From positions 1,116,001-1,180,000 of the forward strand of contig NZ_CP011253.3 in assembly GCF_000972785.3 (NCBI RefSeq): DNA of 64,000 bases, given 5' to 3'. Below the pieces are notes generated by a model. The model was given only the letters and a program-made list of their open reading frames with translations, was not told the DNA's origin and searched no databases. The stretch's first letter is position 1. Each line of letters begins with the position of its first letter. A program made the translations under genes and the position numbers. This stretch comes from Pandoraea oxalativorans. Lineage in GTDB: Bacteria; Pseudomonadota; Gammaproteobacteria; Burkholderiales; Burkholderiaceae. Below, piece by piece: positions 39,641 to 52,489 of the stretch.

Positions 39641-39656
39641 AGCAATTTGGATGCCA
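39641..39656 (-). promoter_or_regulatory. Sigma-54 promoter of the phosphopantetheinyl transferase gene
   Basis: On the minus strand the sequence is TGGCAT-CCAAA-TTGCT, with the GG and GC doublets at the exact 10-base spacing of -24/-12 promoters. It lies 47 bases upstream of ATG 39594. The 417-base gap 39595-40011 also holds the upstream element at 39717 and a weaker plus-strand candidate at 39927. Confidence 0.75.
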
Positions 39657-39716
39657 TATCGACAACCGAGTAATCCGGGTGTGGACTGCTACTTGTTGCG
39701 TCGCATCACGTAGGCG

Positions 39717-39745
39717 GACACCTGTCGCAGGCTGCGACAGGTGTC
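39717..39745. promoter_or_regulatory. 29-bp palindrome, candidate sigma-54 activator site (UAS)
   Basis: Two 14-base arms (GACACCTGTCGCAG and CTGCGACAGGTGTC) pair perfectly around a single G. The outer part, ACACCTGT-N11-ACAGGTGT, recurs with the same spacer at 52463-52489. The centre is about 100 bases upstream of the expected start from the 39641 promoter, a normal enhancer distance. Confidence 0.75.
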
Positions 39746-39926
39746 GCAGCGTCGGACAACTGTTTGCGCAGGTATGCGATGTCGAACACGCGTTCTAACC
39801 ACCATACCGTTCGTCGCAATAAGCGAGTGCGCCGGTCATGTTTCGTGTAGACATGCGGGTTGCGTAAGAGCGCCTCGGTTCAACAAGGCGCTTCGGATGA
39901 AATGCCGGGGTCGCAGGCAAAACAAT

Positions 39927-39942
39927 GGATCGAAACTTGCAT
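39927..39942 (+). promoter_or_regulatory. Weaker sigma-54 promoter candidate for the aldo/keto reductase gene
   Basis: TGGATC-GAAAC-TTGCA keeps the GG/GC spacing but differs from the consensus in the -24 box. It lies 70 bases upstream of ATG 40012. The palindrome at 39717-39745 is about 220 bases upstream and could serve both directions. Confidence 0.4.
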
Positions 39943-40011
39943 AGTGATGACGACGTACCGGTGTCGACCGACAGACGCCGGGCCCTACGACCACTTCACA
40001 GGAGTTCGACA

Positions 40012-41010
40012 ATGCTGCCAACACGCCGGTTGGGGAAACAGGGGCTGGAAGTCCCCGCTATTGGGCTGGGTTGCATGGGCATGCATTACGCCTATGGACC
40101 TTCCGATGAGGCCGAGTCGGTTCGCGTGCTGGAACGGGCGCTTGCGCTCGGCTGCAACTTCTTCGATACGGCGGAAGTGTACGGCCCGTTCGAAAACGAG
40201 CGTCTTCTCGGTCGCGTACTCAAGGGCCGTCGCGACAAGGCGATCATTGCGACGAAGTTCGGATTTCGCTTCGAAAACGGTGCGGTCACGGGGGCGGACA
40301 GCCGACCCGAGCATATCCGGGAAGTGGTCGACGCCAGTCTGTCGCGACTCGGCACGGACTATATCGATCTTCTGTATCAGCACCGCGTCGATCCCAATGT
40401 GCCCATCGAAGACGTGGCGGGCACTGTCGGTGAGCTCGTCAAGTCGGGTAAGGTGCGTTACTTCGGGCTTTCGGAAGCTGGCGAGCGTACCATCCGTCGC
40501 GCGCATGCCGTGCATCCGGTCAGTGCGTTGCAAAGCGAATACTCGCTCTGGCATCGCGATATCGAAGCGTCGATTCTGCCGTGCCTTCGCGAGCTGGGGA
40601 TCGGGTTCGTGCCGTTCGGACCGCTCGGGCGCGGCTTTCTGACAGGCACCGCGCGGCGCGCCGAAGATTTTCCGGAAGGCGACTCGCGTCGCACGTCGGA
40701 CCCGCGTCTGCAAGGCGAGCATTTCGACGCCAACGTGAAGCTGGCGCAGACGCTCGCGGGCTATGCGGCGCAAATCGGCGTGACGCCCGCACAACTGGCG
40801 CTGGCGTGGCTGCTCTCGCGCGGCGACGACATCGTACCGATTCCAGGCACGCGCCGTATCAGCCGTCTTGAAGAGAACCTTGCGGCGGCAAGTGTGCATC
40901 TCGACCCGGGCATGGGGCGCGCACTCGACGCGCATTTCGGCGCGAACGCGACTTCCGGAAACCGCTACAAGCCGACCGCCATGATGGCGTTGCTGGCGGA
41001 TCCGGCGTAG
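40012..41010 (+). CDS. Aldo/keto reductase
   Basis: The 332-residue NADPH-dependent TIM-barrel oxidoreductase resembles the AKR12/13-type quinone or aldehyde reductases. It begins [20 protein letters not shown]. The catalytic Tyr lies in [14 protein letters not shown] and the His in LLYQHRVDP. The cofactor-binding [14 protein letters not shown] is near the end. ATG 40012 is fixed by CAGGAG 8 bases upstream. The substrate is unknown. Its promoter region is shared with the phosphopantetheinyl transferase gene, so it may belong to the same regulon. Confidence 0.85.
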
Positions 41011-41119
41011 CGGTGTGAGGGGAATTGAACAGGACCGAAGAAAATGGAAGTGAACGGTGGACCCGGGGCGCCAGGCGCACGACGCCCCGTTGTCCGACCG
41101 TTCGTTTCTTGCGTCGATA

Positions 41120-50579: not shown

Positions 50580-51845
50580 TTAGGCGGCCAGGGGCTGCTG
50601 AGCCGGTGTGCTGTCGGTCACCGGCTCTCCATCCTTGAACGTCATCCCGTCAAGCATCGTCGCGATCTTTTCGGGGGCGCGGATGCGCCGCCACGAGTCT
50701 TCGGCCGACTCGATCAGCTTGAATGCCAGGCCGAGGAACGTCGCGCGCGAGACGCAGTTACGCGTGCGCTTGGTGCGGTGACGCACCGTCGCGAAGGTCG
50801 ATTCAATCGGATTCGTCGTGCGCAGATGCTGCCAGTGTTCGGCCGGGAAATCGTAAAATGCCAGCAGCTCGTCGCGATCTTGCGTCAGCTTTTCGACCAC
50901 CTTCGGATACTTTGCCGAGTGGGTATCAACGAAGTGATTGAAGGCAACCAGCGCTTCGGCACGCGTGGCGGCCATCCAAATGTCCTGCATCGCCTTTTTG
51001 GCGCGGGCCTGCTGCGATTTCGGCAGCGCGTTGAGCACGTTGCCCATCTTGTGGAACCAGCAGCGCTGATGCTTGGTCTGCGGGAACACTTCTTCCATCG
51101 CTGCCCAGAATCCCATCGCACCATCTCCGCAAGCCAGCAGCGGCCCTGACTGCAGACCGCGCTTTTTCAGATCGAGCAGCAGTTCGGCCCACGACGCCTT
51201 CGATTCCCGATACCCGTCACTGATCGCCACACGCTCTTTCGTTCCGTCCGGTTTGACACCAATGATCACCAACAGGCACTGGCCGTCGGAATCGTCGCTG
51301 CGCACGCCGGTGTGAATGCCGTCAGCCCACCAGTACACCCAGCGCGCCAACGACAACTCACGCTGATTCCACTGAGCATGCTCATCGGCCCATTGCGCCT
51401 TCAGACGACTCACCACATTTGGCGACAGGCCGCTGACCTGGCCGCCCAGCATGATGCCCATGGCTTCGCTCATGTCGCCCGTCGAGATGCCTCGCAGGTA
51501 CAGCCACGGTAGTGCGGCCGACACGCGTGCGGATTTGCGAACGTACGGCGGCACGACCGCCGAATTGAAGCGGATGCCCGAACCCGAGCGATCACGCACC
51601 TTCGGTACCCGAACCGGCACCGGACCGATGGCCGTGACGACTTCGCGCTCTGGTAGGTAGCCGTTGCGCACCACGGCACGCCGACCGTCGATCGACCTCA
51701 CGTTGCTGTACTGTTCAAGCATGCTCGCCAGTTCCGCTTCGACTGCCTGCTCGATGATCTGCCGCGCGCCTTGCTGGATCAGTTCATCGAGCGCGCTCTT
51801 CGTTTGTGCTTTTCTGCCGTTCGTTTCTTTCATAATCTTCTTCAT
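50580..51845 (-). CDS. IS256-family transposase
   Basis: The 421-residue mutator-type transposase has its DDE residues in recognisable places: Asp in WWADGIHTG, Asp in [15 protein letters not shown] and Glu in [16 protein letters not shown]. The frame is intact and the length normal, so transposition may still occur. ATG 51833 (MKETNGRK) is an alternative start. The 3' end lies 39 bases inside the left inverted repeat boundary. Confidence 0.95.
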
Positions 51846-51941
51846 GGTGGTCGGGGCCGGCTCGCGCCGGCTTTGCTCGGTGTGCCTTCGACAAGCAACA
51901 TTCTCAGCTAAACCGCCACCGCCTTCTCATATTTCCCAAAG

Positions 51942-51971
51942 CACCCCGTACACCAGATTCGACAATAGCTC
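51942..51971. repeat. IS256-family terminal inverted repeat, right
   Basis: Its reverse complement begins GAGCTATTGTCG and continues AATCTGGTGTACGGGG. It pairs with the left repeat at 50541-50570. Confidence 0.88.
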
Positions 51972-52297
51972 TCGCGCATGGCGGCGAGGTACAGATCGAA
52001 GTGGCTCATCGGGCCTTGCGGCGTCTCGTCGCATTCTTCGCCGAGCACGATCTCGTTGATCAGACGTGCGGCATGAATATTGCGCGGTGCGATCCACGGC
52101 AGCGTGATCGTCGTGAGGTCGGCTTGCAGGCGCTTGACCAGCGACATGAAGTCCCAGACGGCAAACACGTGCCACTCCATGAACGTCTGCAAACCTTGCA
52201 TCGATTCGATGGAGTGGAACACCGGGTGATGTGCAAGCGTCGCGTGATGTTCCTTGATCTGACGTTCGAGATGTTCGATCTTGTCCACGATAGGCAT
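51972..52297 (-). pseudogene. DUF3050 (heme-oxygenase-like) gene, 5' part (MgoB/PvfA-like)
   Basis: This encodes the N-terminal 109 residues ([49 protein letters not shown]), typical of DUF3050, a family with a heme-oxygenase-like helical fold. Beyond the insertion site the frame runs into the element ([13 protein letters not shown]) and stops. Its first 9 bases on the plus strand are the right target duplication (51972-51980). The start lies about 80 bases downstream of a sigma-54 promoter. Confidence 0.85.
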
Positions 52298-52375
52298 CCT
52301 TGTGATAACGATGTTGAAATCAACCTGTGCGAGGGGGAATGCGGCGCGACTTTCAAGTCGTCGCCCACAGGGATC

Positions 52376-52391
52376 AGCAAGTTCGATGCCA
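52376..52391 (-). promoter_or_regulatory. Sigma-54 promoter of the mgo/pvf-like operon
   Basis: On the minus strand the sequence is TGGCAT-CGAAC-TTGCT, with both hexamers identical to those of the promoter at 39641-39656. The expected transcript starts near 52365, about 70 bases before ATG 52297. The 405-base gap 52298-52702 also holds the upstream element at 52463 and a terminator at 52650. Confidence 0.8.
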
Positions 52392-52462
52392 GCGTCTCGA
52401 AACGTAAGAATCTAGACGATTGAGGGGAATTTTCGGAGGGCGAACGGGCGTCCGCAGGCATG

Positions 52463-52489
52463 ACACCTGTTCAGATAATGGACAGGTGT
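52463..52489. promoter_or_regulatory. Upstream activator site of the mgo/pvf-like operon (UAS)
   Basis: ACACCTGT (52463-52470) and ACAGGTGT (52482-52489) form a perfect 8-bp inverted repeat with an 11-base spacer. The same arms and spacer occur at 39718-39744. The centre is about 110 bases upstream of the expected transcription start. Confidence 0.8.

What the first reader, a model, noticed from the sequence alone, without database searches (positions are those of the whole stretch)
39641..52489. Two distant loci share one enhancer-like palindrome and identical -24/-12 boxes
ACACCTGT-N11-ACAGGTGT occurs at 39718-39744 and 52463-52489. Each copy has a TGGCAT-N5-TTGCT promoter downstream on the minus strand (39641-39656 and 52376-52391), about 100 and 110 bases before the expected start, a difference of one helical turn. 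The first drives a phosphopantetheinyl transferase and the second an operon with a carrier-domain synthase. A sigma-54 activator gene lies between them. Together they look like a small dedicated sigma-54 regulon that co-expresses a signal-molecule synthase with the enzyme that activates its carrier domain. Related mgo genes in Pseudomonas are, to my knowledge, controlled by Gac, so this would be a different control.
Basis: partly seen in the sequence, partly recalled or inferred. Interest (0 to 1): 0.88.

Follow-up and report, generated by a model that had tools for sequence, protein, structure and literature searches.

The report
Sigma-54 switch for a bacterial signal
In Pandoraea bacteria, two stretches of DNA that look built for a special kind of gene switch (sigma-54) appear to turn on together the genes that make a diazeniumdiolate-type signal molecule and the helper enzyme that activates its carrier protein, which gives a concrete candidate control circuit for a signal family whose receptor is still unknown.

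Summary
The window is Pandoraea. ACACCTGT-N11-ACAGGTGT occurs exactly twice in the 6.5 Mb genome, each time upstream of a canonical -24/-12 box. Of 32 genus genomes 21 carry the motif (up to 1 mismatch); the same 21 carry the synthase and the sigma-54 activator (EBP), 11 carry none of the three. All 41 readable promoters (20 phosphopantetheinyl transferase, 21 ham-type operon) keep the box.

The palindrome must be redrawn. Each arm is itself a small dyad, ACA-NN-TGT, core of a 16-bp operator TGCGACANNTGTCGCA. Units stand 19 bp apart here (a third one at the transferase), otherwise spaced in clusters outside the genus, and 30-34 bp apart at a second locus near a paralogous EBP. Of seven ham clusters read outside Pandoraea, three with the EBP keep units and boxes; four without it (one genus) have neither. 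EBP and a divergent LysR gene share a conserved ATAC-N7-[GC]TAT box.

Best model: LysR controls EBP; EBP activates sigma-54 transcription of signal operon and transferase. Not shown: binding, RpoN dependence, inducer. The regulon may not be exclusive. In this strain the first operon gene is split by an insertion sequence.

The parts
38839..39594 (-). Phosphopantetheinyl transferase (ACPS superfamily); likely start ATG at 39594 (my queries used 38839-39597)
   Evidence: Pfam PF01648 E=4e-08; found in 20 of 32 genus genomes, all carrying the synthase, in 0 of the 11 without it
39641..39656 (-). -24/-12 box TGGCATCCAAATTGCT of the transferase gene
   Evidence: pattern present in 20 of 20 readable transferase promoters
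39718..39725 (.). operator unit 1 (promoter-proximal), core ACACCTGT
   Evidence: core ACANNTGT exact in 19 of 20 genomes
39733..39748 (.). operator unit 2, full 16-bp palindrome TGCGACAGGTGTCGCA
   Evidence: 14 of 14 consensus positions in 17 of 20 genomes
   Evidence: core exact in 14 of 20 genomes, changed or missing in 6
40012..41010 (+). aldo/keto reductase, conserved neighbour (name from PMC5878181 and sequence; not scanned here)
   Evidence: homologue in all three clusters outside Pandoraea that carry the EBP; neighbourhood noted in PMC5878181
41120..42232 (-). sigma-54 enhancer-binding protein without a recognised sensor domain: AAA+ (26-189) and Fis-type HTH (316-351), GAFSGA loop
   Evidence: PF00158 E=1.5e-62, PF02954 E=4.6e-11; GAFSGA and recognition helix
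42363..42402 (.). conserved intergenic LysR-type region: CCAATACCATATGATGCG and ATAC-N7-CTAT (42388-42402)
   Evidence: ATAC-N7-[GC]TAT in 30 of 30 EBP-LysR intergenic regions examined
42440..43354 (+). LysR-family regulator divergent from the EBP gene
   Evidence: PF03466 E=3e-39, PF00126; pairing kept in Pandoraea, in three clusters outside it and at the paralogous locus
43380..44681 (-). class I/II aminotransferase, last gene of the operon (start approximate)
   Evidence: PF00155
44711..45202 (-). polyketide-cyclase-like protein (hamE/mgoD type)
   Evidence: PF10604
45278..48913 (-). adenylation-carrier-reductase synthase (hamD/mgoA type)
   Evidence: PF00501, PF00550, PF07993; 21 of 32 genus genomes
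48924..49847 (-). AurF-like N-oxygenase (hamC/mgoC type)
   Evidence: PF11583 E=7.8e-16
50063..50540 (-). 3' fragment of the split DUF3050 gene (hamA/mgoB position)
   Evidence: PF11251, profile 88-232
50541..51971 (-). insertion sequence (Mutator-type transposase 50580-51845) that splits the first operon gene; about 9-10 bp repeated at the flanks
   Evidence: PF00872; breakpoints by comparison with G001, absent from the other 20 genomes
51972..52297 (-). 5' fragment of the split DUF3050 gene
   Evidence: PF11251, profile 1-92
52376..52391 (-). -24/-12 box TGGCATCGAACTTGCT of the synthase operon
   Evidence: TGG[CT]A[CT]N5TTGC in 21 of 21 genomes
52463..52470 (.). operator unit 1 of the synthase operon, core ACACCTGT
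   Evidence: core ACANNTGT exact in 21 of 21
52482..52489 (.). operator unit 2 of the synthase operon, core ACAGGTGT
   Evidence: ACAGGTGT in 21 of 21
52494..52501 (.). weaker conserved element (minus strand ACACCCGC) 12 bp further upstream, possible degenerate unit
   Evidence: conserved block in the alignment; inference

Best explanation
A LysR-type regulator senses an unknown inducer and controls a divergent enhancer-binding protein without a recognised sensor domain (41120-42232). That protein binds arrays of a 16-bp palindromic operator (TGCGACANNTGTCGCA, core ACANNTGT), here 66-105 bp upstream of the -24 box and, within Pandoraea, on a preferred helical face, and drives RpoN-dependent transcription of two units: the ham/mgo-type operon that should make a diazeniumdiolate-type signal, and the phosphopantetheinyl transferase that would activate the synthase's carrier domain. 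Shown: sequence anatomy, conservation, co-occurrence. Inferred: binding by this EBP, RpoN dependence, the LysR layer, the product. The confidence given is for the core (EBP and sigma-54 at both promoters); for the LysR layer I would say 0.6.
For: Motif (up to 1 mismatch), synthase and EBP orthologue (82% identity or more) present in the same 21 of 32 genus genomes and absent from the same 11. Generalised motif ACANNTGT-N11-ACANNTGT hits only these two loci in the 32 genomes, 0 in the reversed control. -24/-12 pattern in 41 of 41 promoters; of 42 hits in 745,398 positions only 1 lies elsewhere. Outside the genus, 3 of 3 ham clusters read that have an EBP orthologue (63-65%) keep ACANNTGT units and a -24/-12 box before the operon; 4 of 4 without it (all one genus) have neither in 19.9 kb. 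A paralogous EBP with almost the same recognition helix lies about 5 kb from three copies of the same operator between two divergent -24/-12 boxes; seen in 5 of 6 genomes read, the sixth stretch being cut short. Unit-to-box distance in transferase promoters changes in steps near 10.5 bp (R=0.97 over 4 length classes, P about 0.004 against random positions; classes chosen after seeing the data). RpoN family present in 31 of 32 genomes, this one included. Transferase found only in synthase carriers.
Against: No binding or expression data. Co-occurrence within the genus may only reflect inheritance of one linked block. The paralogous EBP could bind the same operators. In the synthase promoter the units keep little beyond the 8-bp core (6-9 of 14 consensus positions). 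The helical phase is not shared by the clusters outside the genus nor by the paralogous locus (by hand). In the G654 cluster the second array (one exact and one imperfect unit) has no -24/-12 match. In this strain the operon's first gene is split, so the output here may be lost.
Confidence: 0.8

Rival explanations
1. The LysR regulator, not the EBP, binds the 27-bp palindrome, whose arms contain a T-N11-A dyad.
For: TGT-N11-ACA fits the LysR T-N11-A rule (recalled); the LysR gene is conserved beside the EBP.
Against: The spacing between units is not N11 elsewhere: exact units 32-33 bp apart, with an imperfect unit 20 bp after the first, in the three ham promoters outside the genus; 21 bp before the DUF296-like genes; 30-34 bp at the paralogous locus. 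A separate ATAC-N7-[GC]TAT box lies in the LysR-EBP intergenic region in 30 of 30 loci read.
Confidence: 0.07
2. The paralogous EBP (or both EBPs) drives the two promoters, so this is one branch of a larger shared regulon rather than a dedicated one. This is partly compatible with the best explanation.
For: Same 16-bp operator at both loci and near-identical recognition helices, CRTSLYRKL and CRASLYRKL.
Against: In the genomes without the ham block the paralogue and, where read (G008, G011, G017), its operators remain while the first EBP is missing; the first EBP occurs only with the ham block.
Confidence: 0.25
3. The boxes are not used: the operon is mainly transcribed from a sigma-70 promoter, as mapped for Pseudomonas mgo, and the palindromes bind a repressor.
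For: The P. syringae mgo start site was assigned to sigma-70-type boxes (PMC3298696, passages).
Against: -24/-12 kept in 41 of 41 Pandoraea promoters and in 3 of 3 EBP-bearing clusters outside the genus.
Confidence: 0.06

Closest known systems
ham gene cluster of Burkholderia cenocepacia H111 (fragin, valdiazen)
   Same: DUF3050, AurF-like, adenylation-carrier-reductase synthase and cyclase genes; PMC5878181 itself lists Pandoraea homologues lacking hamB, with conserved LysR, 'Fis regulator' and aldo/keto reductase neighbours and an extra aminotransferase (passages)
   Different: Four ham clusters of another genus read here (g11, unnamed; I take it to be Burkholderia) carry no EBP homologue, no ACANNTGT unit and no -24/-12 box in 19.9 kb. 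The 12 of 39 passages of that paper that I saw do not describe promoters of the Pandoraea cluster; the word 'phosphopantetheinyl' does not occur in its main text.
mgo operon of Pseudomonas syringae and pvf of P. entomophila
   Same: mgoBCAD: haem-oxygenase-like, N-oxygenase, synthase and a fourth gene, the order seen here (enzyme classes of mgoC and mgoD recalled)
   Different: mgo start site assigned to sigma-70-type boxes (PMC3298696); mgo expression lower in a gacA mutant, pvf apparently outside Gac control (PMC3945005). Here sigma-54-type boxes. Pseudomonas promoters were not compared by sequence.
PspF-type enhancer-binding proteins without a sensor domain
   Same: AAA+ plus Fis-type HTH with about 25 residues before the AAA+ domain; PspF structures among the PDB matches
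   Different: Paired with a divergent LysR gene; best sequence match in the PDB is ZraR; GAFSGA instead of GAFTGA (consensus recalled)
Paralogous LysR-EBP pair near a TRAP-type transporter, dehydrogenase and thiolase-like genes in Pandoraea
   Same: Same divergent pair, same operator, -24/-12 boxes
   Different: EBP about 59% identical, unit spacing 30-34 bp, units about 95-310 bp from the boxes, catabolic-looking targets (named from reading frames, not scanned)

Membership tests
sigma-54 (RpoN) promoter | GG and GC doublets with TGGCAY-N5-TTGC spacing | tested here: met
   TGG[CT]A[CT]N5TTGC in 41 of 41 promoters
sigma-54 (RpoN) promoter | RpoN encoded in the genome | tested here: met
   PF04552 in 31 of 32 genus genomes including this one
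sigma-54 (RpoN) promoter | transcription lost without RpoN | not testable with these tools
   needs an rpoN deletion and reporter
bacterial enhancer-binding protein | sigma-54-interacting AAA+ domain with GAFTGA loop and DNA-binding HTH | tested here: met
   PF00158, PF02954; the loop is GAFSGA in 30 of 30 homologues read, a serine variant of the recalled consensus
bacterial enhancer-binding protein | binds upstream operators of its target promoters | not testable with these tools
   indirect: operators co-occur with the EBP in and outside the genus
ham/mgo/pvf diazeniumdiolate signal cluster | DUF3050, AurF-like, adenylation-carrier-reductase and cyclase genes in that order | tested here: met
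   the DUF3050 gene is split here, its two parts adjacent in the other 20
ham/mgo/pvf diazeniumdiolate signal cluster | produces a diazeniumdiolate signal | not testable with these tools
   no chemistry
LysR-controlled divergent promoter | T-N11-A dyad of the ATAC-N7-GTAT type in the intergenic region | tested here: met
   ATAC-N7-[GC]TAT in 30 of 30; in Pandoraea the second arm is CTAT, so the dyad is imperfect there
LysR-controlled divergent promoter | LysR-dependent expression of the EBP gene | not testable with these tools
   inference

The most novel reading that the evidence does not exclude
The LysR-EBP pair is the receiving circuit for the diazeniumdiolate signal: LysR (or the EBP itself) responds to the molecule made by the operon, so the relay LysR to EBP to sigma-54 is a positive feedback loop, and a catabolic LysR-EBP-operator module was copied and rewired to run cell-cell signalling.
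Probability: 0.25. Interest if true: 0.78.

Novelty: new variant of a known kind. Interest (0 to 1): 0.56.

Why it matters
[quoted passage not shown] A conserved LysR-EBP pair with a defined candidate operator next to the synthase gives a concrete circuit to test in Pandoraea and in clusters of two other genera. If right, it also shows the carrier-activating enzyme placed under the same operator and box as its client synthase, and two paralogous sigma-54 activators that apparently share one operator with different unit spacing, a natural case for studying how enhancer spacing sets specificity.

Tried and rejected
LysR as binder of the palindrome: considered because of T-N11-A; set aside because unit spacing varies while the unit persists and a separate LysR-type box exists.

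Single 27-bp operator: set aside, because the centre dinucleotide of the first transferase unit is GG instead of CC in G010 and G014, a third unit follows in step, and spacing changes between loci.

AurF hits of 28-35% identity in the same family (G143, G059, G144) and in other families of the order (G527, G339, G369): not used as evidence; G143, G059 and G144 were read and showed no EBP, transferase or DUF3050 match. The 51% hit G049 has only the AurF match. Rfam search of 39500-52800: no match. PHROGs for the EBP: one family of unknown function and one weak ATPase match.

Literature: a search for the operator string with enhancer terms found 521 papers with at least 2 of 5 terms; none of the 15 listed holds the string. 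Searches on diazeniumdiolate signals, valdiazen or leudiazen regulators, mgo with RpoN, and Pandoraea (20 of 153, 15 of 1,006,967, 17 of 17, 15 of 271 and 12 of 324 listed) showed no title or abstract start describing sigma-54 control of such a cluster. I read passages only, of PMC10194917, PMC5878181, PMC12838280, PMC3298696 and PMC3945005.

My first -24/-12 scans of relatives used a wrong spacing (7 instead of 6 bases); one search repeats the scan correctly for the seven loci L120-L126 and one search uses the right spacing for the paralogous loci.

Not done: Pseudomonas mgo promoters were not compared by sequence; whether the block is a gained or lost island in the 11 negative genomes was not tested; no structure was predicted; the EBP content of the four EBP-lacking clusters' genomes outside the 19.9 kb was not searched.
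Full report
WHAT WAS CHECKED. The palindrome ACACCTGT-N11-ACAGGTGT stands exactly at 39718-39744 and 52463-52489 and nowhere else in the window with up to 3 mismatches; 100 shuffles gave mean 0.08 and never 2. In the window's own genome (6.5 Mb) 5 other places match, all with 3 mismatches, no more than the 6 of the reversed control. The two minus-strand boxes are at the stated coordinates with canonical sigma-54 spacing. 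The genus is Pandoraea: contigs of the same length carry named Pandoraea records; the species of the window itself was not named.

GENES. Pfam gives a phosphopantetheinyl transferase, a sigma-54 activator with AAA+ and Fis-type HTH domains and only about 25 residues before the AAA+ domain, a LysR regulator, and an operon of DUF3050, AurF-like oxygenase, adenylation-carrier-reductase synthase, polyketide-cyclase-like protein and aminotransferase. This is the ham/mgo/pvf enzyme set. Jenul et al. 2018 (PMC5878181, passages) already list Pandoraea homologues of the ham operon and note conserved LysR, 'Fis regulator' and aldo/keto reductase genes and the extra aminotransferase. The DUF3050 gene is split in this genome by an insertion sequence at about 50541-51971; in the other 20 genomes the two parts are adjacent.

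CONSERVATION IN THE GENUS. With up to 1 mismatch the palindrome is found in 21 of 32 genomes; the reversed control gives one hit, in G023. Three of the 21 (G010, G014, G026) show one copy at that threshold: in G010 and G014 the transferase copy has 2 mismatches, in G026 the contig ends before it. The synthase is found in the same 21, and an EBP orthologue of 82% identity or more in the same 21; in ten others the best EBP match is 56-60% identical, and G018, a 1.2 Mb genome, has none. The transferase is found in 20 of 32, all among these 21; the missing one is G026. So these features come and go together, which linkage alone could explain. The generalised motif ACANNTGT-N11-ACANNTGT, without mismatches, hits only these two loci in the 21 genomes, nothing in the other 11, and nothing in the reversed control. 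The -24/-12 pattern TGG[CT]A[CT]N5TTGC is present in 20 of 20 transferase and 21 of 21 operon promoters; in the 745,398 positions scanned (both strands of 21 regions) there are 42 hits, of which 41 are these promoters.

REDRAWING THE OPERATOR. At the transferase a third unit follows in the same 19-bp step; its core is exact in 14 of 20 genomes and changed or missing in 6. Each arm is self-complementary in its outer letters (ACA-NN-TGT), and in G010 and G014 the centre of the first unit is GG instead of CC without loss of the pattern. The middle unit of the transferase array matches TGCGACANNTGTCGCA at 14 of 14 positions in 17 of 20 genomes; the operon's units keep little more than the 8-bp core (6-9 of 14). 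A paralogous EBP of about 59% identity (56-63%) is listed for 30 of 32 genomes (not G018 or the incomplete G026; the listing is capped). I read its surroundings in 6 genomes. In 5 of them three units with 12-14 matches out of 14 stand 30-34 bp apart between two divergent -24/-12 boxes, one towards a TRAP-type transporter operon and one towards a thiolase-like gene (named from the reading frames, not from a family search); in the sixth, G030, the stretch fetched ends inside the transporter gene. A genus-wide search for the 16-mer with 1 mismatch finds 156 places in 31 of 32 genomes against 35 for the reversed control. The listing is cut after G013; in the listed part every exact copy but one (G001:C6) is at the transferase array or in a 30-34 bp array of the paralogous kind, judged by coordinates. 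Hence the unit, not the 27-bp palindrome, is the likely operator. Single ACANNTGT octamers also occur by chance, for example at window 39525-39532.

OUTSIDE THE GENUS. A scan of 398 family genomes found 29 with a close AurF homologue: 21 Pandoraea, G049 (51%, no ham operon around it), and seven others. I read the seven. All three have, before the operon, two exact ACANNTGT units 32-33 bp apart with an imperfect one (ACACCTGG or ACAGATGG) 20 bp after the first, and a -24/-12 box. G603 and G662 also have ACACCTGT-N13-ACAGGTGA and a box, TGGCATCGAAGTTGCT, before a minus-strand gene pair resembling DUF296 proteins (recalled from sequence, not scanned); G654 has the gene pair and one exact and one imperfect unit there but no matching box. 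No relative of the transferase was found in the genomes of L099 and L101, in a search without positive control. The other four clusters (one genus) have no EBP match, no ACANNTGT and no such box in 19.9 kb; the rest of their genomes was not searched for the EBP.

HELICAL PHASE. Within Pandoraea the distance from the nearest exact unit to the -24 box falls into classes of about 45.5, 66.5, 78 and 87.5 bp for the transferase (R=0.92 over 20 promoters at 10.5 bp) and 72.5-77.5 for the operon (R=0.85 over 21). One value, 86.5 of G029, belongs to unit 2 because unit 1 has a changed letter there; unit 1 is at 67.5. Against random positions the clustering of five class values on a 10.5-bp period has P about 0.0045; the classes were formed after seeing the data and related genomes are not independent. 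By hand the promoters outside the genus and the paralogous locus do not share this phase, so the claim is limited to these Pandoraea promoters.

LYSR LAYER. In all 30 EBP-LysR intergenic regions read (21 Pandoraea, 3 others, 6 paralogous) there is ATAC-N7-[GC]TAT, and a nearby CCAATAC..TAT block matched my pattern in 20 of 30; the sequences printed show it in the remaining ten with a changed base. The recognition helix is CRTSLYRKL in the 21 Pandoraea EBPs and CRASLYRKL in the three outside EBPs and the six paralogues. The natural reading is that LysR controls the EBP gene, whose product has no recognised sensor domain.

HOW IT MOST LIKELY WORKS. LysR senses an inducer and raises EBP; EBP binds two or three operators and, with RpoN (present in 31 of 32 genomes), opens the transferase and operon promoters, so that the synthase and the enzyme that loads its carrier appear together. 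Shown: anatomy, conservation, linkage. Inferred: binding, RpoN dependence, LysR control, product. Unknown: inducer, and whether the two paralogous EBPs cross-talk.

AGAINST KNOWN SYSTEMS. In P. syringae the mgo start site was assigned to sigma-70-type boxes (PMC3298696, passages) and mgo expression depends on Gac (PMC3945005, passages); for P. entomophila pvf the same passages speak against Gac control, and Pvf and Gac are proposed to act independently (PMC10194917). The Pvf receptor is stated to be open. A review of Burkholderia cepacia complex signals describes valdiazen autoregulation without naming a regulator in the passages I saw (PMC12838280).

CHANGES AT CHECKING.

Noticed in passing
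50541-51971: A Mutator-type insertion sequence splits the first gene of the signal operon in this genome only (1 of 21), with about 9-10 bp repeated at the flanks; the strain may have lost the signal.
   Followed up: partly
52298-52366 (minus strand): The operon's leader is well conserved and can form a GCGAC...GTCGC hairpin in four of five genomes folded (G029 folds differently); no Rfam match.
   Followed up: partly
L147 and L077 (paralogous locus in the same genome): A second LysR-EBP pair with three near-perfect 16-bp operators between divergent -24/-12 boxes, towards a TRAP-type transporter with a dehydrogenase and towards a thiolase-like gene.
   Followed up: yes
L120 and L121 in operon orientation, about 11100-12260: In two clusters outside the genus the second operator pair and box precede a pair of DUF296-like genes instead of a transferase.
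   Followed up: partly
G001:C2:317130, G002:C1:467423, G003:C1:3264385, G004:C1:827826, G005:C2:352872, G009:C1:791911: TGCGACAACTGACGCA or a near copy, one mismatch from the operator, recurs in six of the genomes in the cut listing; context not read.
   Followed up: no
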